52,548 nt of DNA from Pseudomonadota bacterium. Lineage in GTDB: Bacteria; Pseudomonadota; Gammaproteobacteria; JAADHS01. Made by a program: the position numbers and the translations under genes. The notes below the pieces were generated by a model that was given only the letters and a program-made list of their open reading frames with translations, made no database searches and was not told the origin of the DNA. Of the stretch, positions 1 to 27,817 are shown in pieces. Numbering within the stretch: the first letter of the stretch is position 1; every line of letters begins with the position of its first letter. The stretch covers positions 1-52,548 of the forward strand of contig JAKACW010000030.1 in assembly GCA_021821045.1 (NCBI GenBank), written 5' to 3'.

Positions 1-582
1 CCGGCGAGCGCGGCCTTTTAGGGCGGCGGGAATTTCGAGCCGCTCAGGTGGCAGGATGAAGAGCTTGATGGCGGGAAACCAGCGTTTGGCGGCGCCGTAC
101 TTGAGTTTGGAGAACGGCGTGAGCTGTGCGCCGTCGATGCGTATCGGCAGGATCGCGGCGCCGGCGTGATCGGCGATCATGCCAACGTGATCGTAAATCT
201 TCATTAGAGAGCCGGTGACCGTGACGCGACCCTCGGGAAATAAAACGACTTTGCGACCCTCCTGCAGAAGTCGGATCAGGGCCTTGGCGGACAGCGGGTC
301 GGTTGGTTCCAACGCAAAGGTGTCGACGAGAGAGAGTAGCGCCCGCAAGAAGGACTTGTCGAAAGTCCGCGCATTCAGTGCAAACGTGACTTTGTCGGGC
401 AAAAAGGCCGCCAACAGCAGGACATCGATCAGCGAGGTGTGGTTGGCGATGATCAGCACCCGCTCGCCAGCGTTGTGGTAATTGTTGATCCCCGTCACAT
501 TGACCTTGTAAATCCAGCGCAGCAGAAGTCGCACTAGCCCTTTCACGCTCTGCAGATTGATTGGGATCTTACCTACGATCAT
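1..582 (-). CDS. aas: Aas-like 2-acylglycerophosphoethanolamine acyltransferase (partial, N-terminal part)
   Basis: The first 194 residues are visible; the reading frame runs off the left edge. An acyltransferase signature NHTSLID (H48, D53) and the acceptor-site motif FPEGR (115-119), followed by VTVTGSLMKIYD, closely match the N-terminal half of E. coli Aas, the inner-membrane enzyme that re-acylates lysophosphatidylethanolamine using acyl-ACP. Whether the usual AMP-dependent acyl-ACP synthetase half follows cannot be seen. The ATG at 582 follows a GAGGTAG ribosome-binding site. A plain PlsC-type acyltransferase is the alternative, but the GSLMKIYD stretch favours Aas. The patatin phospholipase gene upstream on the same strand would generate the lyso-lipid substrate, a tempting but unproven link. 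Confidence 0.8.
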   Translation of the reverse strand, partial: MIVGKIPINLQSVKGLVRLLLRWIYKVNVTGINNYHNAGERVLIIANHTSLIDVLLLAAFLPDKVTFALNARTFDKSFLRALLSLVDTFALEPTDPLSAKALIRLLQEGRKVVLFPEGRVTVTGSLMKIYDHVGMIADHAGAAILPIRIDGAQLTPFSKLKYGAAKRWFPAIKLFILPPERLEIPAALKGRARR

Positions 583-610
583 GTCACGCTACCTCTGCCA
601 TCGTTTCCTG

Positions 611-690
611 GTGGGAGCGGTTTCCTACCGCGATTCGAAACGGTATGAATGATGAGTCAGGCCAAGAATCGCGGAAGAATCCGCTCCCAC
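611..690. repeat. REP-like inverted repeat pair
   Basis: Two facing arms: GTGGGAGCGGTTTCCTACCG at the left and AATCGCGGAAGAATCCGCTC then CCAC at the right. They can fold into a long hairpin. The element fills the gap between the patatin gene and the Aas-like gene and belongs to the family scattered over the first 46 kb of the window. Confidence 0.85.
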
Positions 691-716
691 GGTTGGAATT
701 GGTTGTCATCGTTACC

Positions 717-2579
717 TCAACCCCCGGCCTCGTTGGAAAGCGCGAACGAAGTTATATTTTTCAGTCCCTCCAACTTGCGCTCCGCCTCGCGCACGCCGAT
801 TTCATATAATTCATCAAAGTGATCGAAGTCGAGCATGCTGAACTCGTTGGTGTCGGGCTCGAGCAGAATGTCGGCGTGGCTGGCTTCCTTGGCCCCGTGC
901 CAATAGGCCTGCACTTCCCATGATCGCAGCCACACGTTTCTGAAGCCGAACTGGGCGTTGATTCTCTTGCGCACACTCTCCGCGGTGGAGCGCTTGTTGC
1001 CCGGAATCGGCGCGACGTTGACGGCGATCTTGGCGCCGCAGCGGTGCTGTTGTAGCAGATCGACCGGCACGCGACTCACCGATGCGCCGTCGAAGAGAAT
1101 CTTATCCTCAAAGGGCACCGGCGGGAAAAAGCCCGGTATGGCCGAGGTGCTCAGGGCCGCCAGCTTGAGCGAGCCGCTGTCGATGACGACGCGGTGGCCC
1201 GAGATCAGATCGGCGGACACGGTGGAGACGGGCCAATGCAAGTCGCCGATTTTCTTGTCGCCAAACACCCGTTCCGCCGTATTGCGAATTTTGTTGCCGC
1301 CGTAAATCGACGTCTTAAAGGTCGAGGCCAGATCCAGCACGTATTTGCGCCGGCCCAGGGTTTCCCGGATGCAATGGGCCGCTTCGTCGGCGGAGCCGAC
1401 CAGCGCATAGGTCAGACCGACGATGCCGCCGATGCTGGTGCCGCTGAAATAATCGATGGGGATATTGTTCTGCTCCAAGACTTTGAGAACCCCCAAATGG
1501 GCGAAGCCGCGGGCCGCGCCGGAGCCCAAGGCGATGCCGATGCCGCTGCGGGTAATCCAGCGCGCCAGCCAATGCAAACGCGCCTTTTGCGCAACCGTCA
1601 GTTCGCCGCGGTCCAGCGCTCCAAGGTCCGGAATCTCGATATCGTAGTGCCAGCGCTCTTTGCTCAATTGTGAGCCATGGTTGGCGCGCTTGATCTCGCA
1701 GAACAGAAAATCGGCGCGACCAAAGGTGTATCCGCTTGACTTCACTTCCGGCAGCGGCGCGTCCGGCAGCACCAGGGAAACGACCGCATCGCGATCGCAG
1801 AGGGAGAGTTCGAGTCCGGCCACCGCGGACCACGGCGCGACGACGATCAAGTGCTGTCCCGCGACACCTTCGGCGCGCCACCGGACGAGCAATTCCGACA
1901 GCGGAACCTTGTCCCGGTGGATGCCGAAACCCGGATACTCCCCGGCGCGAGTGCGTAAGTCGAATGGATGCAGCGCCTCGCTTAGGAACGGGTTCGCGGT
2001 GCCGCCGGCGAACCGGGTAGCCGGCGCGGATTCGTCGCCGTTGGGTCGACGCCATTCGCAATACAACGCCTCGGCGGCATAGCCGCGAATCGCTTGATAC
2101 AGCGCGCGGGCGAAAAACCAGCCTTCGTCGTGGCCGTCGGGCACCGCGATGATGCAGCACGCGGGACCGGCCCCAGACCGCTCCTGGGGCGATTGGCGCA
2201 AACGATTGACGACAAGGTCCGACACCGCGCGATGAAACACCGGGCAGGTGTCCATCAAGTTCAGAAACGCCTCTTTCGGCAGCGTATAGGCGCGGGTGGG
2301 TTTGGCGGCGAAGACGCTGACGGAGACGGGTTTGCTCGACAGCAAGGACAGTTCGCCCAGCGCTTCGCCGGGCCCGAGGAAATAGCCTTCGCTTTCCCCG
2401 AACATGACTTTGACGCCGCCGGCGCCAATGACAAACAGTTGCCGGCCTTCCTCGCCTTTGCGGCACAGTGTGGCGCCTGTTGGGTAATCAACCACGTTCG
2501 CGAGGCGCTCAACAGCGGCTCGCTCATCGGCGGTGAGGCCGGCGAAGAGGGGTATTTCCGATAACTCCAGCATTGCCAA
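717..2579 (-). CDS. Cyclic-nucleotide-binding / patatin-like phospholipase (NTE family)
   Basis: 620 residues. Residues about 10-125 form a cNMP-binding (Crp-type) beta-roll. A middle linker of about 200 residues follows, then a patatin domain with oxyanion loop GSGAARG (352-358), nucleophile elbow GTSIGG with S382, and the DGA motif with D497, so the Ser-Asp dyad is intact. The family (bacterial relatives of neuropathy target esterase and RssA) hydrolyses phospholipids or lysophospholipids, probably at the inner membrane and here perhaps gated by a nucleotide. There is no signal peptide, so it is cytoplasmic or membrane-associated. The start could be ATG 2579 or ATG 2573; both lack a strong ribosome-binding site. 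It lies in the same direction as the Aas-like gene. Confidence 0.88.
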   Translation of the reverse strand: MAMLELSEIPLFAGLTADERAAVERLANVVDYPTGATLCRKGEEGRQLFVIGAGGVKVMFGESEGYFLGPGEALGELSLLSSKPVSVSVFAAKPTRAYTLPKEAFLNLMDTCPVFHRAVSDLVVNRLRQSPQERSGAGPACCIIAVPDGHDEGWFFARALYQAIRGYAAEALYCEWRRPNGDESAPATRFAGGTANPFLSEALHPFDLRTRAGEYPGFGIHRDKVPLSELLVRWRAEGVAGQHLIVVAPWSAVAGLELSLCDRDAVVSLVLPDAPLPEVKSSGYTFGRADFLFCEIKRANHGSQLSKERWHYDIEIPDLGALDRGELTVAQKARLHWLARWITRSGIGIALGSGAARGFAHLGVLKVLEQNNIPIDYFSGTSIGGIVGLTYALVGSADEAAHCIRETLGRRKYVLDLASTFKTSIYGGNKIRNTAERVFGDKKIGDLHWPVSTVSADLISGHRVVIDSGSLKLAALSTSAIPGFFPPVPFEDKILFDGASVSRVPVDLLQQHRCGAKIAVNVAPIPGNKRSTAESVRKRINAQFGFRNVWLRSWEVQAYWHGAKEASHADILLEPDTNEFSMLDFDHFDELYEIGVREAERKLEGLKNITSFALSNEAGG

Positions 2580-2762: not shown

Positions 2763-3716
2763 TCAGCCCGCGGGCTGTTGCGTCTTAGCGGATTCCTCGG
2801 CGAAACGCTTCTTGAAATCGATGTAGAGCTTGATGAGTCCCACCACCCGTTTGACGTGGAGCGCCAAGCGCTGGGGCAGTGGACGCATGACATCATGTAC
2901 ATCGAAATGGACAAGGTGCTTCACCGGGCGAGACATGAGGATGTCGGCGCCCGCGCGCATGGCCATGGCTCCGAAAAGGTTGGCGGTGTAAACGACCTGC
3001 GGAAACCCGGCGCTCGGATTGCGAAACTGGTGGTGCAAAATCTCGATGATCTCGTAGGGCAGCAGCCACGTCGGCACAATCCGGTGGAGGAACGTCATGG
3101 GTTCCAACGCATCCAGTTCTTCCCGCCGCAGCTTGCCATTGAGCACGGGCATGGCGGGGTTTCTGTAGTCATACACCAGCAGCAACTGCAGGCCGGCGAT
3201 GTCGTAGCCGGAAATGACGGGCACCTTGAACTCCTTGGCCTGATGATGCAGCGCGTATTTAGCGTACAGCGGCGGTTTGTTGGTGACATCGACCCCATCG
3301 AGGATAAGGTCTGAGTTCTTTACAAGGGTCACCACGTTGTCATCGGTTATGCCGTGGGGTTCGACTTCAATCGTCGCGTAAGGGTTGACGTCCTTGAGCC
3401 GAGTTTGGAATGCCGCGGCTTTGTTCACCCCCATGTCCTGCAGGCGCACGCTCTGGCGGTTCATGTTGTGGAAGTCATAGCCGTCGGGTTCGGCCAGGGT
3501 GAGGTGCTCGGCGCCGAAACGAATCAGCGGCTCGATCACCGATCCGCCGATGGAGCCGCAGCCGGCGACCAAAATGCGCGCCTCGCGGATGCGTCTTTGC
3601 TCGTCCGGCGGAACGACGCCCGCGTTGCGGGTGACAAGCCTCTTGTAGTACTCCTCATGCGGTGGCAAGTCCACGGTTTGGCCGGTGGTGGTGGTGTATT
3701 GTTGTGTCGTGCTCAT
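2763..3716 (-). CDS. ThiF/MoeB/E1-like adenylating protein lacking zinc and catalytic cysteines
   Basis: 317 residues. It carries a Rossmann nucleotide loop AGCGSIGG (51-58), the adenylation signature DGYDFHNMNRQ and the DGVD motif, as in ubiquitin-activating-like E1 enzymes (ThiF, MoeB, MccB), which adenylate the C-terminus of a protein or peptide. The only cysteine is C53 inside the glycine loop, so the paired CxxC zinc site and the thioester cysteine of classical members are absent. The ATG at 3716 is chosen because GGGGA sits at good spacing; an in-frame ATG at 3740 would add eight residues with a badly placed site. It starts 36 bases past the end of the LolA-like gene and is probably co-transcribed with it. 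Substrate unknown; no obvious ubiquitin-like partner lies nearby. Confidence 0.8.
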   Translation of the reverse strand: MSTTQQYTTTTGQTVDLPPHEEYYKRLVTRNAGVVPPDEQRRIREARILVAGCGSIGGSVIEPLIRFGAEHLTLAEPDGYDFHNMNRQSVRLQDMGVNKAAAFQTRLKDVNPYATIEVEPHGITDDNVVTLVKNSDLILDGVDVTNKPPLYAKYALHHQAKEFKVPVISGYDIAGLQLLLVYDYRNPAMPVLNGKLRREELDALEPMTFLHRIVPTWLLPYEIIEILHHQFRNPSAGFPQVVYTANLFGAMAMRAGADILMSRPVKHLVHFDVHDVMRPLPQRLALHVKRVVGLIKLYIDFKKRFAEESAKTQQPAG

Positions 3717-3752
3717 TGTTTTCCCCAAGTAAGTAGCCATGCCCCCGATTCG

Positions 3753-4541
3753 TCACAAATCCTTCACCAGCTCCTGGGTGGAAAAGCTGCCGTCCGGCAC
3801 TTTGGTGTTGTACTCGATTTTCTGCAGGACCATGATGCTCTTCTTGTTGTTGGTGTGATTGGTCACAACGGTTTCCATTGCGGTGGCGTAGCCTTGAACG
3901 TCTTCGAGCTTGGTCACCTCGATGGTCTTGAGCAGTTTGTCCTTCACGTAACAGTCGACTTTCACGACAATGAAGGTGTCCTTGTCCACCCACGAGACCA
4001 GTTTGCTGTACGGATAGTCGCGCTCATTGGGAATGGATTCGATCACATGGGTTGCGTGATCTTTGTACTGCTCGTCGCGCAGGTAGGTGTGTTTGAATTT
4101 CTTGGCCTGACTCTCTTCAAAGTCGATGTAGTAAAACTCGCTGCCCAAGAATGCGCCGTCCTTTTTGGCGGCGGGGATCTGCCGCGGCTCTTGCTTGCCT
4201 GCCTCGCTGAGGTACAGCCATTGCAGGTTATCCTGTTCGGCAAAGGCGTGGATAAGCAGGCCGGAGTTCTTCAGTTGCTTGGGTGCGATGAATTTCAGCA
4301 GCAGCTTGGAGTCGTCGCCGTAGTCCTTGCGCAAGAACAGCAGCTCGCGGCTCTTGGTTTTGCCCGAGGCGGAAACGAGCACCATTTGCATCAAGGCGCG
4401 GAAATCCTCGCCGGCGTCGCGATGCTGGACTTTTTCCATCACGCCCATTGCGTCGACGTCCGCGGCGTTCGCCGGTTGGGCAGTTATAAGCAAGCTGCAC
4501 CCCAGGATGAGCATTGACGATAGGGCGGATCTCGGTAACAT
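3753..4541 (-). CDS. LolA-like periplasmic outer-membrane lipoprotein-sorting protein
   Basis: 262 residues with a Sec signal peptide (hydrophobic core SMLILGCSLLITA, cleavage after PANA). The rest is beta-rich and fits the LolA-like fold often annotated as outer membrane lipoprotein-sorting protein and encoded beside MMPL/RND exporters. Members are thought to carry a lipidic cargo across the periplasm; the cargo here is not known. ATG 4541 has GGGAG eight bases upstream; a GTG at 4547 is possible but less likely. It is divergent from the RND exporter at 5000, so the 458-base gap between them probably holds both promoters. Confidence 0.75.
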   Translation of the reverse strand: MLPRSALSSMLILGCSLLITAQPANAADVDAMGVMEKVQHRDAGEDFRALMQMVLVSASGKTKSRELLFLRKDYGDDSKLLLKFIAPKQLKNSGLLIHAFAEQDNLQWLYLSEAGKQEPRQIPAAKKDGAFLGSEFYYIDFEESQAKKFKHTYLRDEQYKDHATHVIESIPNERDYPYSKLVSWVDKDTFIVVKVDCYVKDKLLKTIEVTKLEDVQGYATAMETVVTNHTNNKKSIMVLQKIEYNTKVPDGSFSTQELVKDL

Positions 4542-4999
4542 CGGCACGGCTCCCAGCTTATTTTTTATACATTCGGTGAGGCGGCGATTTTCCCATAGGG
4601 CCTTGCCCTGCGCAACTTGGCGACGTCGACGGCAGTGATCCAGTCAACAATCACGCATTTATATTCATGCGCCGGTTCATCGATGCGGTCGTGGGAGCGG
4701 ATTATTCCGCGATGCGCTCCACGGCGCGTCACCGCTATCGATTTGGATCGCAGTCTGCGAGCGCGCGTAAGTAAATACCCGCGGCGAAATGCAAACGATC
4801 TATTGTTCAGATTGTTCATCGCGGCTACGAACGATGAAGCATATCAGGATGTTCTAATGTGTCATCCGCGGCAACTGATCGCCGTCGATTCCATGTAAAA
4901 TTCGCGGCAGTTCGTTTTCGGCGCGCCCCGGCCGGCTCAGTTCCTTCACTGCACGGAATGGTTCGGTGGTCGCCAGTAACACAACTCAGGGACAAGACA
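4542..4999. other. Divergent intergenic region between LolA-like and RND exporter genes
   Basis: 458 bases with no convincing gene. It contains one solitary REP arm (about 4691-4713, GTGGGAGCGGATTATTCCGC). A TTGTTC/TACGAA pair with a 17-base spacer (around 4805-4835) is a weak sigma-70 candidate for the rightward gene. A reading frame open from 4859 joins the exporter but lacks exporter-like sequence before residue 48, so I treat it as untranslated. Confidence 0.5.
4691..4713 (+). repeat. Solitary REP-like arm
   Basis: A single arm GTGGGAGCGGATTATTCCGC followed by GAT, without a facing partner within 150 bases. It lies in the divergent intergenic region. Confidence 0.75.
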
Positions 5000-7369
5000 A
5001 TGCACATCACCCAGTTTCCCGTGAACCATCCGCGCAAGACGATTGCAGTCTTTGCCCTGGTGACGCTCGCGTTCGCCATTTTCGCGGCCCAGATCAAGCA
5101 GTCCGCCGACGTGTCCGTCATCGTTGACGCGGGGCTGCCGCAGTTGGTCACCAAGAATCAGATGGAAGCGATTTATGGCGATACGAACTTTGCCATCATA
5201 TCCATTGAGGAAGACGCGTTCAGTCAGGAAAACCTCGCGGCCATGTTCGCGGTCACCCAGCAACTCGAAAGCGACGAGAAAGTACGCAAGGTCACCAGCG
5301 TCTTCAACACGCAGCACATCGAAGGAACATCCGAGTCATTCGAAGTGACGGATTTGTTGAGCGAGGTGCCGAAAACCGCCGCGGAAATCGCCGAGTTCAA
5401 GAAAAAAATTGCCGCGGTCGCCCTCTATCGCGGCAACCTGCTTTCATTGGACGGCAACGGCCTGGGCATGATGGTCGAGTTCGTGCCGGGCACCGCCGAT
5501 GACGTGATGTTCGCGACGATCCACGCCGCCTTGGAAGCGGCGGGCAAGGGGGGGATGTGGGCCGTCAGCGGACTGCCGATCATCAATACCCAGATCAAAG
5601 CCTACATGGACAGCGATTTCCAACTTCTCATGCCATTGTTCTTCCTGTTCATTATTATCGTGCTTTATCTGTCGTTCAGAACTGCGCGAGGTGTCATTGT
5701 CCCCCTGCTCAATATCATTTTTTCCATCGTGTTGACCACAGGCGCAATGGCCGCTTTGAACATACCCCTCAATGTGGTGACCAACGTCATTCCCATGGTG
5801 CTTATCGCCATCACGAGTTCCTATGGGATTCACTATCTCAGCCACTTTTTTGCCGAGAACCGTGTGCGGACGGACAAGCGAGACGTCATCGTTTACAGCA
5901 CTAAGCATGCCTTGGGCATCGTGATTCTCACTGGGCTGACGACGTTTCTGGCGTTCATGACCAATGCGCTGAGCGAAGTGAAAGCGGTGCGCGAGTTCGG
6001 CATCTTCGTGGCCATTGGCGTTGCGGCCTCCGTCGTCGCGACGCTGATATTGACGCCCGCGGTGTTGGCACTGATGAAGAAAGCCAAAATAACAGGACCC
6101 GCCGAGGCGGAGGATGGAGAACCTCATACGGCTCTGGAGCGCGCGCTGGCGTGGCTAGGTGAATTGATAATCACCCGTCCGAGCGCCACACTGGGCGTTG
6201 TGCTAGTCGTCTTGGTCGCCCTGGGCTACAAGATCAGCAGCGTTGAAGCGGACTACACGGCGCTCGGTTATTTCGAAGATGACTCCGCCATCGTCACCGA
6301 CGCCCGGGAAGTTTCTCGCCAGCTGGGCGGTATCAACGGATTTGAGTTCGATTTGGACACCGGGCGCGAAGAGGGCATCCTGCGCAGCGACGTGCTGCGG
6401 GTCATGGATGAGTTCAGCGTTTGGATGAAGCAGCAGTTCCCCAACGACGTGAAGGTGACGCTTTCGTTCGCCGACTACGTGAAAGAAATGAACAAGGCCT
6501 ACAACGGGGGCGACCCGGCGGCGTTCGCGATCCCCAATTCGGACAGCGAGATCTACCAATACGTGGAGATCTATTCGTGGTCCGGCGACGTGGAGGAGGA
6601 CTTTCGCAACGTGGTCACCCCCAATTATCGCCGGGCGCATATCCACGGGCGTTTCATGCTGCACGAGCATCCCGATGGAACCTACAACGAGTCCAGCATC
6701 ACCGATCTAAACAATATGATCCGAGCCGCGCGGGATTGGCTCGATCAGCATTTGCCTGACGATGTAACGGTCACCCCTTTCGGGGTGCTGCCAATGTGGA
6801 AGCAGGTGCAGGTAGATATCATCGACGGCCAGATTCAGGGCATTTACATGGCCTTGGCGGCGATCTTTGTGATCGTGGCCATAGCGTTTAGGTCGGCGGT
6901 GATTGGCGCCATCGGATTGATCCCCGTGGCGAGCGCGGTTGTTGCGGTGTTCGGGGTCATGGGGTGGACCGGCATCTATCTCGAAATCGGCACCAGTTTG
7001 GTCGCGGCCATGGCCATCGGTATCGGCATCGACGACACGATTTACTTCCTCATGATTTACAGATCGTGGCGTGCCAAGGTTGCGGACGCCAGTACAGCGA
7101 TGCGCAAGACGTTCGTTATCGCCGGCAAAGCCATCTTGTACACCAGTTTTGCGCTGATGGCGGGTTACGGCATTCTCACCCTTTCGAACTTTAAAGTGAT
7201 TCAGTACTTCGCAATATTGAACTTTGTGGCCATCGTGGCGACGACCCTGGGTGCGTTGGTGCTGTTGCCGCTGATAATGCAGCTCTCGGAGAAAAAACTG
7301 GCGGTAAAGTACGCGGGCCTCGCCGGTGAGGCCTCGCCGCTGATCGAACCGGAGCGACGATTGGATTAG
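5000..7369 (+). CDS. RND/MMPL-family exporter (COG1033 type)
   Basis: 789 residues. An N-terminal membrane helix (KTIAVFALVTLAFAIFAA) precedes a large periplasmic loop. A cluster of five or six helices follows (about 225-400), then a second helix and periplasmic loop, and a second membrane bundle near the C-terminus (about 605-770). This is the duplicated six-helix topology of RND proteins. The GTSLVAAMAIGIGIDDTIYF stretch (helix 10 region) carries the acidic residues expected for proton relay. COG1033-type members are predicted lipid or hydrophobic-solute exporters and often accompany LolA-like proteins, as here on the opposite strand. The start is set at ATG 5000 because an upstream extension to 4859 shows no membrane or signal character. 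Confidence 0.82.
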   Translation: MHITQFPVNHPRKTIAVFALVTLAFAIFAAQIKQSADVSVIVDAGLPQLVTKNQMEAIYGDTNFAIISIEEDAFSQENLAAMFAVTQQLESDEKVRKVTSVFNTQHIEGTSESFEVTDLLSEVPKTAAEIAEFKKKIAAVALYRGNLLSLDGNGLGMMVEFVPGTADDVMFATIHAALEAAGKGGMWAVSGLPIINTQIKAYMDSDFQLLMPLFFLFIIIVLYLSFRTARGVIVPLLNIIFSIVLTTGAMAALNIPLNVVTNVIPMVLIAITSSYGIHYLSHFFAENRVRTDKRDVIVYSTKHALGIVILTGLTTFLAFMTNALSEVKAVREFGIFVAIGVAASVVATLILTPAVLALMKKAKITGPAEAEDGEPHTALERALAWLGELIITRPSATLGVVLVVLVALGYKISSVEADYTALGYFEDDSAIVTDAREVSRQLGGINGFEFDLDTGREEGILRSDVLRVMDEFSVWMKQQFPNDVKVTLSFADYVKEMNKAYNGGDPAAFAIPNSDSEIYQYVEIYSWSGDVEEDFRNVVTPNYRRAHIHGRFMLHEHPDGTYNESSITDLNNMIRAARDWLDQHLPDDVTVTPFGVLPMWKQVQVDIIDGQIQGIYMALAAIFVIVAIAFRSAVIGAIGLIPVASAVVAVFGVMGWTGIYLEIGTSLVAAMAIGIGIDDTIYFLMIYRSWRAKVADASTAMRKTFVIAGKAILYTSFALMAGYGILTLSNFKVIQYFAILNFVAIVATTLGALVLLPLIMQLSEKKLAVKYAGLAGEASPLIEPERRLD

Positions 7370-7427
7370 TTACGGCCTCTCAGGTCGGTTCTCGATGATC
7401 GGAGCGGCTGTTGTCGGAGGCATGCTT

Positions 7428-7540
7428 GTGGGAGCGGATCATTCCGCGATTGACGCCATGAAGAATCGCGGGTCGCTTTCGGCATCCATGCCTTTCGCGA
7501 CACTAGCACGTCCATGTGCGTCGTAGGAAACCGCTCCCAC
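7428..7540. repeat. Long REP element with two internal hairpins (copy C)
   Basis: It starts with an arm GTGGGAGCGGATCATTCCGC and ends with GTAGGAAACCGCTCCCAC. Between them are two further hairpins: 7472-7501 (GTCGC paired with GCGAC, inner GGCAT with ATGCC) and 7506-7519 (GCAC with GTGC), separated by four bases. The same architecture with the same spacing recurs at 12000-12111 and 27728-27802. Confidence 0.85.
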
Positions 7541-7584
7541 AGCGAAGATTAAAGACTCGCGAATAACGAAAAGGGAGATGAACG

Positions 7585-8973
7585 ATGTTTGGTCGAGAAG
7601 CAGCGGAGGCCAAGTCACAGCGGTTTCCTCTTACCGCGTTTGAACACTTCTTTGTCGCGGAAGACAAGGTCGACTATCCCGGCGTGTTCTTCTTGCGAAT
7701 GACGTTCACGGGTACTTTCGACGAAGAACGACTCCGCCTTGCGTTCTATCGCACCGCGGCGCGTCATCCGCTTATGAACGCCCACTTGGAAGGCGATCCG
7801 AGTCAACGCACGATGGACTTGGCTTGGCGGGTCGCCGACGACGATCACCGACCGTACATCTACTTCGGGCCGCTCGATGCGCCCATTCAGTATCCGCGTG
7901 ATACCGGCAAGTTCATCGATCTGAAAAAAGAGACCGGCGTGCGCTTGTTCGTTACGCAGGGGAACGGCAAGGCCGTTCTCTTGCTGCAATTGCACCACTC
8001 CTGCGCCGACGGGATTGGTTCAGTGTTGTTCATGGAAGACGTGCTGGGCTTTTACCACATGCCGCGCGGTACGTCGGAGAGGGAGTTTGGTCGCTACGTG
8101 AGGGAGATCGATCCCTCCATCCTGCCGCGCCGCGGCACCTACCATTTAACGCCGGAGGACTTGGCCAAGCGGCGCAAAAAGGATCTACGCAATTGGGCGG
8201 GCTTTTTTACCTTTGTCCCCAAGTCCATTGCCATTAACCGAGCGAGTCACCGCCAGATCGACCGCGACAATGCGCCGTATCCCGCCACGTCGGTGGCGGA
8301 GTTCTCCGAAAGCGAAGTGAAGGACGTCATCCAGACGGCCAAGGGTCTGGGCGGATCGGTGAATGATCTGGCTTTGCGGGATTTGTTTTTGACCGTTGAC
8401 CAGTGGAACCGAGAGCACAACAGCAAGAGTCAAGCCATTCGCGTCGGTATTCCGGTGAATCTGCGCAAGGAAGCCGACAAAGCCATGCCCGTGACCAACG
8501 TGGTCAGCATGTATTTCATGGATCGGCCCGCCAGCCAACTGGTGGACGAGAATGCGCTGTTCAAGAGCATCCACGACGAAACCGCCTATCTCAAAGAGCA
8601 CAACATGGCGTTGGCGTTCGTGCGGTTTTTTTCTTTGGCCGGGCGGGCCAAGCGACTGGTCAGCCTGGTGACCGACACGCCGGTGCCCAAATGCGGCAAC
8701 ACCACGTCGCTGAGTAATCTCGGGTTGGTGCTCAAGGACACCAAACTGCCCAAGCAAGGCGACAAGGTGGCGTTCGACGGCGTTGTCCTAGAACGAGTCG
8801 AATTGCTACCGCCGGTACGCCGTCACACCTACGGCACATTTGGCGTGGCAACCTACAACAACAAAATGGCCGTGACCTTTCACTTCGACGCGAGGAATCT
8901 CAGTCAGAGTGATGCCGATCGCCTGATGGAGCTTTATAAGGCCCGGATTCTAGAAAGTACAAGAAAGCACTGA
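7585..8973 (+). CDS. Condensation-domain-like acyltransferase (HHxxxDG)
   Basis: 462 residues, full length for a stand-alone condensation/WS-DGAT-fold acyltransferase. The catalytic motif HHSCADG is at 137-143, and a TSLSNLG stretch near residue 375 fits the latch region of this fold. Such enzymes (wax-ester synthases, PapA5-like enzymes, free-standing NRPS condensation proteins) join an acyl thioester to an alcohol or amine. No carrier protein or adenylation domain is encoded nearby, so an acyl-CoA or acyl-ACP donor and a lipid acceptor are likely. The ribosome-binding site AGGGAG is well placed. It is 10 bases from the outer-membrane barrel gene, so the two are probably one operon with the RND exporter upstream. 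Confidence 0.75.
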   Translation: MFGREAAEAKSQRFPLTAFEHFFVAEDKVDYPGVFFLRMTFTGTFDEERLRLAFYRTAARHPLMNAHLEGDPSQRTMDLAWRVADDDHRPYIYFGPLDAPIQYPRDTGKFIDLKKETGVRLFVTQGNGKAVLLLQLHHSCADGIGSVLFMEDVLGFYHMPRGTSEREFGRYVREIDPSILPRRGTYHLTPEDLAKRRKKDLRNWAGFFTFVPKSIAINRASHRQIDRDNAPYPATSVAEFSESEVKDVIQTAKGLGGSVNDLALRDLFLTVDQWNREHNSKSQAIRVGIPVNLRKEADKAMPVTNVVSMYFMDRPASQLVDENALFKSIHDETAYLKEHNMALAFVRFFSLAGRAKRLVSLVTDTPVPKCGNTTSLSNLGLVLKDTKLPKQGDKVAFDGVVLERVELLPPVRRHTYGTFGVATYNNKMAVTFHFDARNLSQSDADRLMELYKARILESTRKH

Positions 8974-8983
8974 CGGAGCAATC

Positions 8984-10312
8984 ATGGATGGACGATTTAG
9001 AGGCAGCTTGCTGGCGGGATTGTGTTGCCTGGCGGCGGCTAACGGCGCTGTGGCGGAAACGGAGTTTTCGGGCACGGTTGAAGCACTCCTCAGAGCCGAC
9101 GACGACGGCAAATATATGAACCAACAACTGCGTCTGGATGCGGAGGCGGTTTACTCCCCCGAAGACGGAGAAAGCCTTGGGTTTAGCGACGAAGAAACAG
9201 ACGGCGGACGTTCACCTGAAGCACGGGTTCGCTTTTGGGCCATATCCGATCCGGCGGACGACGGCATTGAGCGGGACAACGTGGAGCTGCATACCGGCGG
9301 CGTGACCGTCTTTCCCTTCGAGAACAGCTCAGTGTTCCTGGGGCGAGACTACGTCATCTGGGGCCGGGCGGACAAAGTCAATCCGGTGGACGTGGTCAAT
9401 GGCGAGGACTTCACCCAGTTTCTGGTTCAGGATCAGCAACGGCGGAAGCTGCCCAACACCCTGGTCAATTACACCTATGCCCGCGAGGACACCAAGTTCG
9501 AGCTGATTTACGTTCCCAGTTACGAGGGTCATTTGCTGCCGATACGCGGCACGCGCTGGTGTCAGTACCGCTGCGAAGTGGCCAGCCCGGTCACCGGTAC
9601 CCAGTCGGGGTTTGATGTCACCGTTATGGATACCCTCGATGCCAATGACGTCGACAGTGGCGAACTTTCGGCGCGCTTCACCTCCCGGGCCGGGCGGTAT
9701 GATTACGGCCTGGTTTTACAGAGCGGTTTCGACAAGTTCCCGGTGTACAGCCGGACATTCACCGGGTTGACGTCGCTGACCTTGAATCGCGAGTTGGAGC
9801 GACGGGAGAAAGTCGGCGGCGACGTGGCCTTCACGGTTGGCGAGTTCGGCATCCGCGCCGAGGCGCTCTACCAGATCGACTCTGTCCTGCACTATCTGGT
9901 CGACACGCCGGAGTTCGTCACCGATGACGACGGATTGAAGGACGTCGACCAGTTGAACTGGATTGTCGGCGTGGACTGGCGCTCCAGCGGCGACCTTTAT
10001 ATCAACGTCCAATACGCCCAGAACAAGTTTCTCGATGTGCCGGAGGAGAAATTCTTCCGTTCCAGCTTCGAGACGTTGGCGACGTTCCAGATCTCGGACC
10101 TGTTTCTCGACAACGATCTGGAGTTGAAGCTGACGGTATTTTACGAAACCGCCGACGATTCTCACGCGGTGTCGCCGGAGGCCGGTTATCGCCTCAGCGA
10201 TGAGGCGCGCTGGGTGACGGGCATTTATTATTTCGAAGGCAACGAGCAAACATTCTTCGGCGAGCATGAGGACAACACCAATGTGTTCACCTATCTCGAA
10301 TATAAATTCTAG
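8984..10312 (+). CDS. Outer-membrane beta-barrel protein (DUF1302-like)
   Basis: 442 residues. Signal peptide (LLAGLCCLAAANGAVA), then alternating beta-strand sequence throughout, ending in YLEYKF; the terminal Phe is the usual BAM recognition signal. The stretch GRDYVIWGRADKVNPVDVVN resembles the conserved WG.AD...DVVN segment of DUF1302-type barrels, which are found with LolA-like proteins and RND exporters. It may form the outer-membrane exit of the system. Identity with DUF1302 is a judgement by eye; that it is an outer-membrane barrel is more secure. Confidence 0.75.
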   Translation: MDGRFRGSLLAGLCCLAAANGAVAETEFSGTVEALLRADDDGKYMNQQLRLDAEAVYSPEDGESLGFSDEETDGGRSPEARVRFWAISDPADDGIERDNVELHTGGVTVFPFENSSVFLGRDYVIWGRADKVNPVDVVNGEDFTQFLVQDQQRRKLPNTLVNYTYAREDTKFELIYVPSYEGHLLPIRGTRWCQYRCEVASPVTGTQSGFDVTVMDTLDANDVDSGELSARFTSRAGRYDYGLVLQSGFDKFPVYSRTFTGLTSLTLNRELERREKVGGDVAFTVGEFGIRAEALYQIDSVLHYLVDTPEFVTDDDGLKDVDQLNWIVGVDWRSSGDLYINVQYAQNKFLDVPEEKFFRSSFETLATFQISDLFLDNDLELKLTVFYETADDSHAVSPEAGYRLSDEARWVTGIYYFEGNEQTFFGEHEDNTNVFTYLEYKF

Positions 10313-10371
10313 TAGGAGCGGATTTATCCGTGATGGAATCTCGATTGCATCGCGGATAAATCCGCTCGTAC
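10312..10371. repeat. REP-like inverted repeat pair
   Basis: Facing arms GTAGGAGCGGATTTATCCGT and CGCGGATAAATCCGCTCGTA then C, within 60 bases. It starts at the stop codon of the barrel gene and precedes the propeller/cupredoxin gene, where it could act as a transcription or mRNA-stability boundary. Confidence 0.85.
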
Positions 10372-10406
10372 GATCTTTGATGGGATGAGAGGTTTTTAAA
10401 AAAGTC

Positions 10407-11981
10407 ATGCAACGATACAATCTACTCCGCCGCGCGCTCATGGTAATCCTGTTATGCCTCGGCGTGATTCCGCTGCTGCAAGCCAGCACCCAAACGACTT
10501 ACGAGATTTACGCTCAAGGGTTCATCAACCCCAAAGGCATGGCGATCGGGCCGGACGGTCTGCTCTACGTCACGGAATCGGGCAAGCCCGGCGATGTTTT
10601 CGTGCCGCTGCCCGCCGCCTATGGCAACGCCCCGCTGGGTGACACCGGCAGAATCTCCGTCGTCAAGAACGGCAAGCGCGAGGACTTCATCACCGGCATT
10701 CCCACGCTCGGGCTTTATGACGGCAAGGAAATGCTGGGCCCGACGGCGCTGACGGTTTTAGACGGCGAGATGTACTTCACCCGCGCGCTGCACATGACCG
10801 ATCCGCCCAAGTTGTACAAGATCGTCAACGGCAAACTGGAGGTGTTCGCCGATCTGGGCGCGTTCAACGCCAGCCATCCGCCGCCCTCGGACAACGGCGA
10901 TGCCGCCATCGGCAATCCCTTCGACATGCTGACCATCGGCAGCGATATCTATGTGTCGGACGGCAACTTCAATCGGGTGTTGAAAGTGGACCGGCAGGGC
11001 AATATCTCGATTTTTGTCGCGTATCAACGTTCCCCGGTAACGACCGGTCTTGCCGCCGACGCCCAAGGCAATCTGTACGTGGCGCAGTTCAGCCCGGCGC
11101 CGTATCACGAAGGCAGTAGTCGCATCGACAAGGTCGCTCCCGATGGCACGCTCACCGAAGGCTACGTGCCCAATCTTACCAACATTGTCGACATCGAGTT
11201 TGCCCCCGACGGCACGCTCTATGCCCTGCAATTCGCCGGCGGCTTCAATCACAACAAGCTGGAATACAAACCCTACAGCGGACGTCTTTTGAGAGTGCGC
11301 GAGGATCGCAGCGTGGAACCGGTGCTGACCAACTTGATGTTCCCCACCTTCATGCACTTCGCTAAGGATGGGGCACTGTACATCTCTAATTTCGGCAATC
11401 AAGCCAACGATGGGCAGGGGCAGATACTCAAAGTGGCTCTCGGCGACCTGCCCGCCGAAGGTCCGACCGTCGCCGCGCCCACCGGGGAGCCGTACGAAGA
11501 ACCCATTGCCGACGGCGGCGGAACGCCGCGGGGCGAGGGCGGCGCAGTGGTGATCGAAATCATCGAGAACGCCGATGCGACCCTGTGGGGCTACAACCCG
11601 AGCAGCGCGGAAGTGCCACCGGGCAGTGACATCATCTTCGTCAACCGCGGCAAAGCACCCCACACCGTGACGGCGGTGGAAGGCGCGTTCGATAGCGGCA
11701 TCATCAAGCCGGGGGATTCGTTTCGGTTTAACTTGGCGCAGTCGGGCACGTACTCGTTTTATTGTGTTCCTCATCCGTGGATGAAAGCCATGATTACGGT
11801 GACGGGCGCGATTGTGCCGGCCGCGGCGGCCGCCGGCGCGCCCGAGACGGTGCCCGTCGCGCCGAAGCGGGAGCTGGAGTTCGAAGGAACGCGCGGCGTG
11901 ATAATCGTCGTGTTGTTGGTGACGCTGGCGGTGGGCTTGTTTTTTGTGGTGCGGCTGTTTGGACAGAAGCGCGAGGCGTAA
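10407..11981 (+). CDS. Membrane-anchored beta-propeller / cupredoxin fusion (ScyD/NHL-like plus blue-copper domain)
   Basis: 524 residues. N-terminal signal sequence (ALMVILLCLGVIPLLQA). Residues about 35-345 contain repeated NHL/SMP-30-like blades (GMAIGPDGLLYVTESG, GLAADAQGNLYVAQF, IEFAPDGTLYALQF) as in ScyD/ScyE-family proteins. A linker is followed by a plastocyanin-like domain (380-468) with ligands H419, C453, H456 and M459 (YCVPHPWM), a complete type-1 copper site. A Pro/Ala linker and a C-terminal membrane helix (498-516) with a basic tail anchor it, so the body faces the periplasm. A role in copper-dependent electron transfer or ligand binding is inferred. The upstream start codon lacks a strong ribosome-binding site. 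Confidence 0.82.
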   Translation: MQRYNLLRRALMVILLCLGVIPLLQASTQTTYEIYAQGFINPKGMAIGPDGLLYVTESGKPGDVFVPLPAAYGNAPLGDTGRISVVKNGKREDFITGIPTLGLYDGKEMLGPTALTVLDGEMYFTRALHMTDPPKLYKIVNGKLEVFADLGAFNASHPPPSDNGDAAIGNPFDMLTIGSDIYVSDGNFNRVLKVDRQGNISIFVAYQRSPVTTGLAADAQGNLYVAQFSPAPYHEGSSRIDKVAPDGTLTEGYVPNLTNIVDIEFAPDGTLYALQFAGGFNHNKLEYKPYSGRLLRVREDRSVEPVLTNLMFPTFMHFAKDGALYISNFGNQANDGQGQILKVALGDLPAEGPTVAAPTGEPYEEPIADGGGTPRGEGGAVVIEIIENADATLWGYNPSSAEVPPGSDIIFVNRGKAPHTVTAVEGAFDSGIIKPGDSFRFNLAQSGTYSFYCVPHPWMKAMITVTGAIVPAAAAAGAPETVPVAPKRELEFEGTRGVIIVVLLVTLAVGLFFVVRLFGQKREA

Positions 11982-11999
11982 GATGAAAAGTCCCGGATT

Positions 12000-12111
12000 G
12001 TGGGAGCGGATCATTCCGCGATTGGCTCGGCGAGGAATCGCGGTAGTCGCTCCGGGCATCCTGCCCTCTCGCGACATTCGCACATCCGTGTGCATCAGAA
12101 ACCGCTCCCAC
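12000..12111. repeat. Long REP element with two internal hairpins (copy E1)
   Basis: Outer arms GTGGGAGCGGATCATTCCGC and AGAAACCGCTCCCAC. The internal hairpins are at 12046-12075 (GTCGC/GCGAC outer stem, GGGCA/TGCCC inner stem) and 12080-12093 (GCACA-TCCG-TGTGC). Spacing is identical to copies at 7428-7540 and 27728-27802. Confidence 0.88.
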
Positions 12112-12146
12112 GACTTGGCGGCGAACTCTGTGAACACGCGCTTGTT

Positions 12147-12207
12147 GTGGGAGCGGATCATTCCGCGATTGGCCCGGCAGAATATCGCAGTATGAAACCG
12201 CTCCCAC
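12147..12207. repeat. REP-like inverted repeat pair
   Basis: Facing arms GTGGGAGCGGATCATTCCGC and GAAACCGCTCCCAC, 61 bases long, the same length as the three tandem copies between prfB and lysS. It sits 52 bases before the MMPL exporter start. Confidence 0.85.
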
Positions 12208-12259
12208 AACTTTGCGGCGTCTTAAAGCGGGGAACAACTTCTGTGAGCGAGCAACAGCA

Positions 12260-14515
12260 ATGAAAACGCCATTCAGCCGTTTAGCCGCGATGGTGATCGA
12301 CAACCGCAAACGGGTCGGCTTGCTGTGGCTGGCCGTGCTGGTTGTTGCCGGCGCCTTGGCCGCGCAAGTGCAGGGTCTGGTCAAGGTCGGCGGCTACAGC
12401 CTGCCGGGCACGGAGTTTCACGAATCATCGGAGATCCTTAGAGAACGCCTCGACCAAACCGCCGCCAAGACTGCGTTGGCGGTTTACCGCTCCGACACCC
12501 TCAAGGTGTACGACAAGCAATTCGAGCAGGAAGTGTCGGCATCGTTCGAGCGCTTGCTCGGCCATTCCCTGGTGAAGCGCATCGAATCGTTTTACGAAAC
12601 CGGCATCCCGGATTTTGTCAGCAAGGACAACCGCACCTTGTATGCCATCGTATTTCTGGATGGCAGCGAAGAAGCCATCGAGCGGGCGACACCGGAGTTC
12701 CGCACCTTGGCTGCATCGGAAATCATCGAGGTGTCTATCACGGGGATTCAAGCCGCCAACTACGACATCGAACAGGCCACCGGCCAGGATATGGCGGCGG
12801 TCGAAGTCTATTCCTTTCCGTTGGTGTTGCTGCTGCTGTTTCTTTTCTTCCGCAGCGTGTTGCTGGGTGTGATCCCTATCGTAGTGGGCGTCGTCTCCAT
12901 CCTGATCACTTTGGGCATACTTGCTGTGCTGGCGTACAACACCGACGTGTCGATATTCGCCATCAACTGCGCCACCATGATCGGGTTGGGGCTCGCTATC
13001 GACTTCTCGCTGATTGCTCTGGATCGCTTCCGCCGCGAAGTGCAGTCGGTGCCTTACAAACAGGCCATAGAAACAATGCTCAACACATCCGGCCGCGCTA
13101 TCTTGCTGTCCGGCGTTACGCTTTTCATGACCATGATCGTGTGGGCGTTGTTTCCGATCATGATCATCAGCTCCATCGCCTTGGCGATCTCGCTGTCGGC
13201 CATCGTCGCCGTAGTCACCGCGCTGCTGTTGATGCCGCTGATCCTGTCGTTTCTCGGTCCGCGGCTGGAGAAAAAATATCGCAGTCGGCCGGTTATCAGC
13301 GAAACGGAAGGGCAGTTCTGGCGGCGTTTCTGCTACAAAGTCATGGGTTCGCCATGGGCCAGTGTGGGCATTGCGTGTGTAATTCTATTCGCGCTGGCCT
13401 ATCCGGCGCTGAACATGAACCGTACCGGCGTTACCCTCGATGTCGTGCCGCCCGTGGTGGAGTCTCGCTATGCCGCGGACATTCTCGCCGAGAATTATGG
13501 CAAAGGCGCCATCGGTCCCATTATGGTGGCGGTGGAAGCGGGCCGTGATGGCGGCATCTGGCAGCGTGAAATCATGGAAGGGCTGTTTGCGCTGCACGAA
13601 AAACTGCGCGCCGATCCGCGGGTGGAGAACGTCCGCTCGCTGATCAGTCTGCGGCCCAATCCGTCGGCGGAATGGGCGACGTCGCTGTCCCAACGGTCCG
13701 TCAAGTCGAATCAAGATTACTATCGCATCGCCAAGAACGTGGTGGATATCGACGGGGCGAATCGAGCCACGGTGATGTATGTGTTCTCCAAAGAAAACGA
13801 GGTGCATCCGTCGACAATTGCATTGCTGGAGGATATTCGCGCCAACGCCGAAATCTGGGCGCCCGGTCTGCGGGTGGCGCAGACCTTTGTCGGCGGCGCG
13901 CCCGCCATGCACTACGATTTCACCACGGTGCTGGACGATCAAGTGCCGTTGTACTTGGGGTTAAGTCTGCTGGTGAACTTCGTGACATTGATGATCGTGC
14001 TCAAGACGGTGATCATCCCGATCAAGGCCGTGCTGACCAATCTGCTGTCGCTGTTCGCCAGTTTCGGCGCGTTGGTCATCATCTTTCAATACGGCTTCGG
14101 CGCCTCGCTGTTTGGGGCGGAGACGATCGGGGCCATTATTCTCTATACCCCGGTGATCGGGTTCGCGATTCTCTATGGCCTGAGCACGGACTATGAGGTG
14201 TTCCTCATGACCCGCGTGCGCGAGCGCATGGCGGAAGGGCTCGGTAACGACGATGCGGTGGCGGCGGGCGTGCAGGATTCCGCCCGCGTCATCACCACGG
14301 CGGGTTTGATCATGATCGTGGTGTTCGGGTCGTTTGCGTTTACTCAGGTGCAAGTGACGCGGGAGATCGGTTTGGTGCTGGCTATCGCGATTTTGATCGA
14401 CATGACCATCGTGCGGCTGGTGCTGGTGCCGGCGACCATGAAGCTGATGGGCGCGCGCAACTGGTGGTTTCCCAAGCCGCTGGATCGGTGGATTCCCGAA
14501 ATCCGCGAGGCTTGA
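12260..14515 (+). CDS. MMPL-family RND exporter
   Basis: 751 residues with the duplicated MMPL plan: an N-terminal helix (GLLWLAVLVVAGALAA), a periplasmic loop, a membrane bundle (about 190-360), a second loop, and a second bundle (about 575-735). The first bundle carries GLGLAIDFSLIALDRFRRE and the second GLSTDYEVFLMTRVRE, both typical MmpL helix-4/10 signatures with acidic and aromatic residues for proton coupling. MMPL proteins export lipids such as mycolates, glycolipids or hopanoids. It differs clearly from the COG1033-type exporter at 5000, so the block has two distinct exporters. The start is placed at ATG 12260, where membrane-protein character begins; the extension back to 12212 includes REP-flanking sequence. 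Confidence 0.85.
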   Translation: MKTPFSRLAAMVIDNRKRVGLLWLAVLVVAGALAAQVQGLVKVGGYSLPGTEFHESSEILRERLDQTAAKTALAVYRSDTLKVYDKQFEQEVSASFERLLGHSLVKRIESFYETGIPDFVSKDNRTLYAIVFLDGSEEAIERATPEFRTLAASEIIEVSITGIQAANYDIEQATGQDMAAVEVYSFPLVLLLLFLFFRSVLLGVIPIVVGVVSILITLGILAVLAYNTDVSIFAINCATMIGLGLAIDFSLIALDRFRREVQSVPYKQAIETMLNTSGRAILLSGVTLFMTMIVWALFPIMIISSIALAISLSAIVAVVTALLLMPLILSFLGPRLEKKYRSRPVISETEGQFWRRFCYKVMGSPWASVGIACVILFALAYPALNMNRTGVTLDVVPPVVESRYAADILAENYGKGAIGPIMVAVEAGRDGGIWQREIMEGLFALHEKLRADPRVENVRSLISLRPNPSAEWATSLSQRSVKSNQDYYRIAKNVVDIDGANRATVMYVFSKENEVHPSTIALLEDIRANAEIWAPGLRVAQTFVGGAPAMHYDFTTVLDDQVPLYLGLSLLVNFVTLMIVLKTVIIPIKAVLTNLLSLFASFGALVIIFQYGFGASLFGAETIGAIILYTPVIGFAILYGLSTDYEVFLMTRVRERMAEGLGNDDAVAAGVQDSARVITTAGLIMIVVFGSFAFTQVQVTREIGLVLAIAILIDMTIVRLVLVPATMKLMGARNWWFPKPLDRWIPEIREA

Positions 14516-14536
14516 GGCCGCGGAAGCGAATCATTT

Positions 14537-14615
14537 GTGGGAGCGGATCATTCCGCGATATAGATCGGCTATGGCGGCGAGTCGGGCGAAGAATCGCGGA
14601 ATGATCCGCTCCCAC
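14537..14615. repeat. REP-like inverted repeat pair
   Basis: Facing arms GTGGGAGCGGATCATTCCGC and GCGGAATGATCCGCTCCCAC. These are exact inverse complements, so the pair can form a near-perfect long stem. It lies between the convergent MMPL exporter and nadA genes. Confidence 0.88.
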
Positions 14616-14643
14616 AGCCCGGCGTCGGCGATTCTTCTCTGAT

Positions 14644-14704
14644 GTGGGAGCGGTTTCATACCGCGATTGAGCCGGCGAAGAATCGCGGATCAATCCGCTC
14701 CTAC
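14644..14704. repeat. REP-like inverted repeat pair overlapping the nadA 3' end
   Basis: Facing arms GTGGGAGCGGTTTCATACCG and CGCGGATCAATCCGCTCCTA then C. The right arm overlaps the nadA stop codon region. Two adjacent pairs between convergent genes could serve as a bidirectional transcription end. Confidence 0.82.
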
Positions 14705-15777
14705 GCCCGGCCCTGACCGCGAACGTCCTTGTTGATCGTCGTCGCGAAGTCCAGCATGCGCTGCAACGGCAGCAGGGCGCGCTCCCGCGTCGCGGCGTCG
14801 ACCAAAATCTCATTGCCGCCGTGTTCCAGCGTATTGGCCAGGGTTTCCAGTTCATTCATCCCCATCCACGGGCAGGCGGCGCAACTGCGGCAGGTGGCGC
14901 CGGTGCCGCCAGTGGGCGCTTCGATGAAGCGTTTGTGGGGCGCCGCTTGGCGCATCTTGTAGAAGATGCCTTTGTCGGTGGCGACGATCAGTGTTTCGTT
15001 GGGCAGCGACTGCGCGGCCTTGATCAATTTAGTGGTGGAGCCGACCACGTCCGCCAGTTCAACCACCGGTTCCGGCGATTCCGGGTGCACCAGCACCGCC
15101 GCTTCCGGATGCAGCAATTTCAGCTTGCGCAGTTCGCGGGCCTTGAATTCGTCGTGGACGATGCACGCGGCATCCCATAGCAGCATGTCGGCGCCGGTTT
15201 CCCGTTGGATGTACGCGCCCAGATGTTTGTCCGGCGCCCACAGAATTTTCTTTCCCTCGGCGTGCAGATGTTCGGCCACATCCAATGCGATGGCGGAGGT
15301 GACGACCCAATCGGCGCGGGCTTTCACCGCGGCGCTGGTATTGGCGTAAACAACGACCTCCCGGTCGGGGTGTTCATCGCAAAACCGGCTGAATTCGTCC
15401 GCCGGGCAACCGATGTCGAGCGAGCAGGTGGCCTCCAAGGTCGGCATCACGATGCGTTTTTCAGGATTGAGAATCTTGGCGGTCTCGCCCATGAAGCGCA
15501 CGCCGGCCACGACGAGTGTGGTCGCAGAGTGGCGGGTGCCGAAGCGAGCCATTTCCAAGGAGTCGGAAATGAATCCACCGGTCTCGTCCGCGAGGGCTTG
15601 AATCGCCGGCGAGGTGTAATAGTGGGCGACGAGCACGGCGTCCTGCGCTTTGAGCAGGCTTTTGATTTTTTCCGTCAACTGATGGGCGGTTAGTTTGGGC
15701 GCCACGGCGGGTGCGCCCGCGCGCTCGAGGCGTATGACGAGTTTCGGCTGCGGCTGGGCGGTCGTGATCGGTGCCAT
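14701..15777 (-). CDS. nadA: Quinolinate synthase
   Basis: 358 residues. NadA condenses iminoaspartate (from NadB) with dihydroxyacetone phosphate to quinolinate in de novo NAD synthesis. The three-fold repeated sequence pattern of the family is clear ([39 protein letters not shown]-type [11 protein letters not shown]). Cysteines for the [4Fe-4S] cluster lie in TCSLDIGC, near [10 protein letters not shown], and in [11 protein letters not shown], where the family has its last ligand. The ATG at 15777 follows GAGAGGG. It lies 32 bases downstream of nrtR on the same strand, so it is likely under NrtR control; nadB is unlinked at 33853. Confidence 0.95.
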
Positions 15778-18290: not shown

Positions 18291-18442
18291 AATCGCGGAA
18301 TGATCCGCTCCCACAGCGTTGGTTTGGGGCGCCGTTGTGGGAACGGTTTCCCACAGCGATTCGTTCGATTAATCATCGCGGAATGATCCGCTCCCACCGC
18401 GTTAGTGTGGCGCACCGTTGTGGGAGCGGTTTCCTACCGCGA
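18291..18442. repeat. Cluster of four REP-like arms
   Basis: Arms in alternating orientation: 18291-18314 (right-type, ends CTCCCAC), 18336-18359 (left-type variant GTGGGAACGGTTTCCCAC), 18374-18397 (right-type) and 18420-18442 (left-type). The cluster fills the gap between the convergent Sel1 and PCuAC genes. Confidence 0.82.
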
Positions 18443-27644: not shown

Positions 27645-27724
27645 GTGGGAGCGGATCATTCCGCGATTGAGTCGGGCGCTGACGAGGGTGCAGCCGAAGA
27701 ATCGCGGTAGGAAACCGCTCCCAC
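27645..27724. repeat. REP-like inverted repeat pair
   Basis: Facing arms GTGGGAGCGGATCATTCCGC and CGGTAGGAAACCGCTCCCAC with a longer centre than usual (80 bases total). It directly follows the cytochrome/PKD gene. Confidence 0.85.
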
Positions 27725-27727
27725 AAA

Positions 27728-27802: not shown

Positions 27803-27817
27803 AAATGGCGTTCGCTT

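What the first reader, a model, noticed from the sequence alone, without database searches (positions are those of the whole stretch)
2763..14515. Candidate trans-envelope lipid synthesis and export system
A LolA-like carrier, a COG1033-type RND exporter, a condensation-fold acyltransferase, an outer-membrane barrel, an anchored propeller/cupredoxin and an MMPL exporter are adjacent, with a ThiF-like enzyme, a patatin lipase and an Aas-like acyltransferase beside them. Together they could make an acylated product, extract it from the inner membrane, ferry it through the periplasm and place it in the outer membrane. The combination with an E1-like protein and a copper-domain protein is not one I recognise.
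Basis: inference. Interest (0 to 1): 0.72.

Follow-up and report, generated by a model that had tools for sequence, protein, structure and literature searches.

The report
Lipid export locus with ThiF enzyme
A little-known gammaproteobacterium carries a gene set that probably makes a fatty-acid-modified small molecule and carries it from the inner to the outer membrane, and it looks like a diverged version of a gene neighbourhood that recurs across many bacteria beside genes for N-acyl amino acid and oxazolone lipids.

Summary
The genes are real and correctly placed. Four of them, a ThiF/E1-like enzyme, a LolA-like periplasmic carrier, an HAE3 (COG1033) RND transporter and a DUF1302-like outer-membrane barrel, form a recurrent neighbourhood. 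In 274 class genomes, ThiF genes of the FeeM/oxazolone-associated type lie within 3 kb of a LolA-like gene in 9 of 30 genomes (own included), against 0 of 118 MoeB/TcdA-type matches. Full loci carry N-acyl amino acid synthase, ThiF, LolA, barrel and RND in a row, for example in Thioalkalivibrio and Thauera. A second form uses a LolCE-like ABC transporter. The window locus is a diverged member at best: its ThiF is a long branch without firm placement, its LolA groups moderately with the ThiF-associated clade, and its RND and barrel do not. Its N-acyl amino acid synthase homologue is on another contig. The condensation-fold enzyme has no relative found outside NRPS domains. The propeller/cupredoxin, MmpL exporter, patatin and Aas genes show no recurrent link and are separated by REP-like repeats. 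The lipid synthesis and export reading is partly supported.

The parts
3753..4547 (-). LolA-like periplasmic carrier (PF17131), signal peptide; core
   Evidence: PF17131 E=1.5e-45; PDB relatives 3bk5, 9tp6; groups with ThiF-associated LolA proteins, support 82/90 and 83/80
2763..3740 (-). ThiF/E1-like adenylating enzyme, no zinc or catalytic cysteines; core (start 3716 or 3740)
   Evidence: PF00899 E=5e-27; best NCBIfam PRK08223, below cut-off; residues G51, G56, D77, R86, K98, D142 kept in all aligned ThiF proteins
5000..7369 (+). HAE3 (COG1033) RND transporter; core
   Evidence: TIGR00921, PF03176; groups with RND of RND-LolA-barrel modules without ThiF, 97/90
7585..8973 (+). Stand-alone condensation-fold acyltransferase; probable core, by position only
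   Evidence: HHSCADG motif aligned with NRPS condensation domains; 10 bp before the barrel gene; no other relative found
8984..10312 (+). Outer-membrane beta-barrel of the DUF1302-like set; core
   Evidence: Aligns with RND- and LolA-linked barrels, some of which hit DUF1302; model and Foldseek
10407..11981 (+). ScyD/ScyE-type propeller, cupredoxin domain and C-terminal TM; neighbour, link unproven
   Evidence: NF033206 E=2e-54; found in no other of 274 class genomes
12260..14515 (+). HAE2/MmpL-type RND exporter; neighbour, link unproven
   Evidence: PF03176 E=5e-77, best NCBIfam MmpL3 and actII, below cut-off; one distant relative in 114 genomes
717..2579 (-). cNMP-binding plus patatin protein; neighbour, link unproven
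   Evidence: PF01734, PF00027; REP-like repeats between it and ThiF
1..582 (-). Aas-like acyltransferase, cut by contig end; neighbour
   Evidence: PRK06814/Aas E=9e-65, partial

Best explanation
The core is five genes: LolA-like and ThiF on the minus strand, and RND, condensation-fold acyltransferase and barrel on the plus strand. Proposed mechanism: a cytoplasmic acyltransferase (this one, or the TIGR03694/FeeM-type N-acyl amino acid synthase on another contig) makes an acylated amino acid or similar amphiphile. The ThiF protein spends ATP to adenylate its carboxylate, for cyclisation to an oxazolone or another condensation. The HAE3 RND pump extracts the product from the inner membrane using the proton gradient, the LolA-like protein carries it across the periplasm, and the DUF1302-like barrel inserts or releases it at the outer membrane. 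Shown: gene identities, the recurrent ThiF-LolA-barrel-RND neighbourhood, and its association with N-acyl amino acid synthase genes elsewhere. Inferred: the product, the order of steps, that the window's diverged ThiF keeps this role, and the role of the condensation-fold enzyme.
For: RND-LolA-barrel is a contiguous module in unrelated genomes. The ThiF group lies within 3 kb of LolA in 9 of 30 genomes including the own one, against 0 of 118 MoeB/TcdA-type matches within 10 kb. In stretches around the 29 other group genes, 16 hold LolA, 11 an HAE3 RND, 17 a nitroreductase-type oxidase and 21 a FeeM-fold acyltransferase. FeeM-ThiF-LolA-barrel-RND runs on one strand occur in Thioalkalivibrio and Thauera. 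Characterised ThiF relatives TyzB, OxzB and TrzS cyclise N-acyl amino acids, and the tyz cluster lies beside mmpL9. The window LolA groups with ThiF-associated LolA proteins. The own genome has a TIGR03694 acyltransferase above cut-off.
Against: A profile built without P0002 scores P0002 108 bits, the same as the genome's own TcdA at 110, and in the tree P0002 is a long branch of uncertain place (55/66). The window RND and barrel do not fall in the main ThiF-associated clades. No FeeM gene was seen in the window, and no flavin oxidase was found in the genome (no positive control in that search). No expression or chemistry.
Confidence: 0.45

Rival explanations
1. An Ame-like hydrophobe efflux module (DUF1302-like barrel, LolA-like protein, HAE3 RND) that expels or handles apolar compounds; the ThiF and condensation-fold genes are loosely linked neighbours.
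For: Same three protein families as AmeA, AmeB and AmeD; the window RND and barrel group with modules that lack ThiF; P0002 cannot be placed firmly.
Against: No YCF48-type AmeC gene in the locus; LolA and ThiF are 12 bp apart; the same ThiF-LolA neighbourhood recurs in many families; the window LolA groups with the ThiF-associated ones.
Confidence: 0.25
2. A biosynthesis and export cluster for a product of the stand-alone condensation-fold enzyme that is not an N-acyl amino acid (ester or polyketide-type lipid), with ThiF activating another carboxylate, as RND-LolA modules also sit beside type I polyketide synthases.
For: RND-LolA modules next to type I PKS in L045 and L061; the condensation-fold gene lies between RND and barrel; no FeeM gene in the locus.
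Against: No PKS, adenylation or carrier protein gene was seen in the region; ThiF neighbours elsewhere are mostly N-acyl amino acid synthases.
Confidence: 0.15
3. All nine genes, propeller/cupredoxin, MmpL, patatin and Aas included, form one pathway.
For: Adjacency and shared strand from RND to MmpL; even GC content of 55-62% across the genes.
Against: No other genome examined shows the combination; gaps with REP-like repeats between barrel, propeller and MmpL.
Confidence: 0.08

Closest known systems
AmeABCD apolar monoterpene efflux system (Castellaniella defragrans, PMC6394551)
   Same: DUF1302 barrel, LolA-fold protein and HAE3 RND encoded together
   Different: Ame has a DUF1329-type LolA, a YCF48-type AmeC and monoterpene catabolism neighbours; the window has PF17131 LolA, ThiF and a condensation-fold enzyme, and no AmeC
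Tyz/Oxz/Trz N-acyl oxazolone biosynthesis (M. tuberculosis, Pseudoalteromonas rubra; PMC10404671, PMC12856293)
   Same: ThiF-type enzyme with adenylation residues kept; in Mtb an RND-type mmpL gene flanks the cluster
   Different: In the window no acyltransferase of the FeeM/OxzA type and no nitroreductase-type oxidase; ThiF only distantly related
Recurrent TIGR03694 acyltransferase-ThiF-LolA-barrel-RND neighbourhood (e.g. Thioalkalivibrio versutus L163, Thauera propionica L213; found here)
   Same: ThiF, LolA-like, DUF1302-like barrel and HAE3 RND adjacent
   Different: Window lacks the acyltransferase beside it, has a condensation-fold gene, and its RND and barrel are from other branches
LolABCDE lipoprotein sorting
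   Same: LolA-fold carrier between an inner-membrane extractor and the outer membrane; some ThiF loci use LolCE-like permeases
   Different: RND pump instead of ABC transporter in the window; beta-barrel instead of the LolB lipoprotein; substrate presumably a small lipid

Membership tests
AmeABCD-like HAE3 export module | HAE3 (COG1033) RND transporter | tested here: met
   TIGR00921 E=2e-58, below its cut-off
AmeABCD-like HAE3 export module | LolA-superfamily periplasmic protein (DUF1329 in Ame) | tested here: inconclusive
   PF17131 E=1.5e-45 with a weak DUF1329 match at E=4e-7
AmeABCD-like HAE3 export module | DUF1302 outer-membrane barrel | tested here: inconclusive
   P0006 itself has no DUF1302 hit, but it clusters with linked barrels, some of which do
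AmeABCD-like HAE3 export module | YCF48-type AmeC protein | tested here: not met
   No such gene among the scanned frames of the locus
Oxazolone-type ThiF (TyzB/OxzB/PRK08223 group) | Adenylation site residues conserved | tested here: met
   G51, G56, D77, N83, R86, K98, D142 invariant across aligned ThiF proteins, MoeB-type included
Oxazolone-type ThiF (TyzB/OxzB/PRK08223 group) | Falls in the group by profile or tree | tested here: inconclusive
   108 bits against 110 for own TcdA; long branch, 55/66; outside MoeB and TcdA clades
Oxazolone-type ThiF (TyzB/OxzB/PRK08223 group) | FeeM/OxzA-type acyltransferase beside ThiF | tested here: not met
   None beside ThiF; a TIGR03694 acyltransferase lies on contig C108
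Oxazolone-type ThiF (TyzB/OxzB/PRK08223 group) | Flavin oxidase (nitroreductase superfamily) partner | tested here: inconclusive
   None found in the own genome, but without a positive control in that search; MAG-like assembly in 140 contigs
Condensation-fold acyltransferases (C domain, PapA5, WS/DGAT) | HHxxxDG active-site motif | tested here: met
   HHSCADG, aligned with NRPS condensation domains
Condensation-fold acyltransferases (C domain, PapA5, WS/DGAT) | Match above curated cut-off to a known subfamily | tested here: not met
   PF00668 23.2 of 30.6 bits, WS/DGAT 40 of 310 bits

The most novel reading that the evidence does not exclude
N-acyl amino acid and oxazolone lipids of proteobacteria and others are outer-membrane or surface lipids delivered by a dedicated Lol-like pathway that comes in two exchangeable forms, RND-driven or LolCE-like ABC-driven, each with a LolA-like carrier and a DUF1302-like barrel. 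The window is a diverged form in which a condensation-fold enzyme takes part in making the product.
Probability: 0.3. Interest if true: 0.75.

Novelty: new variant of a known kind. Interest (0 to 1): 0.58.

Why it matters
How small lipids other than lipoproteins, LPS and phospholipids reach the outer membrane is largely open, and HAE3 pumps and LolA-like proteins are common but mostly without known substrates. The recurrent coupling to N-acyl amino acid/ThiF genes names a candidate substrate class and a testable pathway in culturable genera. The two held papers searched for it do not mention LolA or RND genes, and two targeted text searches did not bring up a report of this link.

Tried and rejected
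Close relatives of the condensation-fold protein: none among 85k genomes by peptide patterns, several hundred genomes by whole-genome search, or plasmids, apart from NRPS-type domains and one weak partial match. AlphaFold2 of that protein: mean pLDDT 39, discarded. The first ThiF profile (A2) contained the window protein, so its high score for the window is circular; the non-circular test and the larger tree removed the claim that P0002 is a proven member. Idea that P0007 and P0008 travel with the module: no support. Foreign origin by base composition: no signal. Promoter and terminator scans: no excess over shuffles. Organism name: not established; the class is inferred to be Gammaproteobacteria. 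PDB entries 9egb/9egc resemble P0002, but no paper on them was found.

Full report
Observation. The window is a whole contig (C100) of a 4.5 Mb genome in 140 contigs. The RND gene most likely starts at 5000, and ThiF at 3716 or 3740. Two pairs are tight: LolA/ThiF (12 bp to the upstream start) and acyltransferase/barrel (10 bp). The other gaps in the region (583-716, 2580-2762, 4548-4999, 7370-7584, 10313-10406, 11982-12259, 14516-14700) hold copies of a REP-like palindrome family, which has 40 matches in the window against 2 expected. Co-transcription of the whole set is therefore not evident.

The export part. With the RND, LolA-like and barrel proteins as queries, contiguous RND-LolA-barrel modules appear in several unrelated genomes of the class (L040, L043, L044, L045, L047, L056, L059). 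Some of these barrels hit DUF1302. The same three families make up AmeA, AmeB and AmeD of the monoterpene efflux system AmeABCD, which in addition has AmeC (PMC6394551). Two RND-LolA modules lie beside type I polyketide synthases (L045; L061). The model of the window barrel is of middling confidence, but Foldseek matches AlgE and porins with probability 1.0. The mechanism of RND extraction, LolA-like carriage and barrel delivery is inferred from these families; no step has been shown experimentally here.

The ThiF part. One of the two closest ThiF matches in the class sits in a locus with a FeeM-cNMP acyltransferase, LolA, barrel and RND (L059). A FeeM-ThiF-nitroreductase fusion exists (L062). 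The characterised members TyzB, OxzB and TrzS cyclise N-acyl amino acids to oxazolones with ATP, and the tyz cluster is flanked by mmpL9. A profile search of 274 class genomes separates this ThiF group from MoeB/ThiF/TcdA by score. Comparing positions with a LolA search of the same genomes, 9 of 30 group-bearing genomes (own included) have both genes within 3 kb, against 0 of 118 MoeB/TcdA-type matches within 10 kb (only the matches listed in the two tables were compared). In the stretches fetched around the 29 other group genes, 16 hold LolA and 11 an HAE3 RND, and 21 hold a FeeM-fold acyltransferase. Three of four tested with NCBIfam pass the cut-off of TIGR03694, the exosortase-associated acyltransferase family, as does the own genome's unlinked copy; the fourth, a cNMP fusion, does not. 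Six loci hold LolA-like and FtsX/LolCE-type permease genes instead of the RND, five of them with a detected barrel. A scan of named genomes gave runs of acyltransferase, ThiF, LolA, barrel and RND on one strand in Thioalkalivibrio (L163, L203, L215) and Thauera propionica (L213), and related arrangements in Ectothiorhodospira, Burkholderiales, Desulfovibrionales and Omnitrophota.

How far the window belongs to it. For: the same four families are adjacent; the best curated model for the window ThiF is PRK08223, though by one bit and below cut-off, which is the family of the Thioalkalivibrio ThiF; the adenylation residues are kept; the window LolA groups with ThiF-associated LolA proteins (82/90 and 83/80); and the genome encodes a TIGR03694 acyltransferase on another contig. 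Against: in a profile built without the window protein its score equals that of the genome's own TcdA. In a 71-row tree it is a long unplaced branch, although outside the MoeB and TcdA clades. Its RND and barrel fall outside the main ThiF-associated clades (the comparison RNDs had been picked as its best matches, which favours that result). No flavin oxidase was found in the genome (no positive control). I therefore call it a diverged or composite variant, not a proven member.

The extra genes. The condensation-fold enzyme has the HHxxxDG motif, but no relative was found other than condensation-type domains at about 25-31% identity, and its model failed. Its place between RND and barrel, 10 bp before the barrel gene, is the only reason to include it. 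The propeller/cupredoxin was found in no other of 274 genomes, and the MmpL protein in one of 114 genomes searched, at 30% identity. They and the patatin and Aas genes stay neighbours.

Verdict. Gene content confirmed; interpretation partly supported. The literature checked does not describe it as an export route for N-acyl amino acid lipids, but only an open-access library was searched.

Noticed in passing
window 583-716, 2684-2757, 4689-4713, 7427-7541, 10312-10371, 11993-12208, 14535-14709, 18294-18391, 23825-24000, 27650-27838, 45687-45744: REP/REPIN-like palindromes (GTGGGAGCGG...CCGCGATT) in many intergenic gaps; 40 matches against 2 expected in shuffles.
   Followed up: partly
L109, L110, L112, L115, L122, L125; L207 and others: A second form of the ThiF neighbourhood with LolCE-like permeases and LolA-like protein instead of the RND pump, mostly with a barrel.
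   Followed up: partly
L058:7540-9283 and L127:2220-4037: Tandem pair of ThiF genes, with an HMGL-type synthase gene nearby, in two genomes of the class; no LolA or RND beside them.
   Followed up: no
L067:3818-8351 and L067:15707-16555 (own genome contig C65): The same genome holds another HAE3 RND next to a DUF1302 barrel, and a second LolA-like gene 7 kb away.
   Followed up: no
own genome contigs C120, C134 and C108: Exosortase genes on C120 and C134, and a TIGR03694 acyltransferase on C108, none near the window locus in this assembly.
   Followed up: partly
window 25810-27639: Protein with PKD domains followed by cbb3-type cytochrome c domains, an uncommon-looking combination.
   Followed up: no
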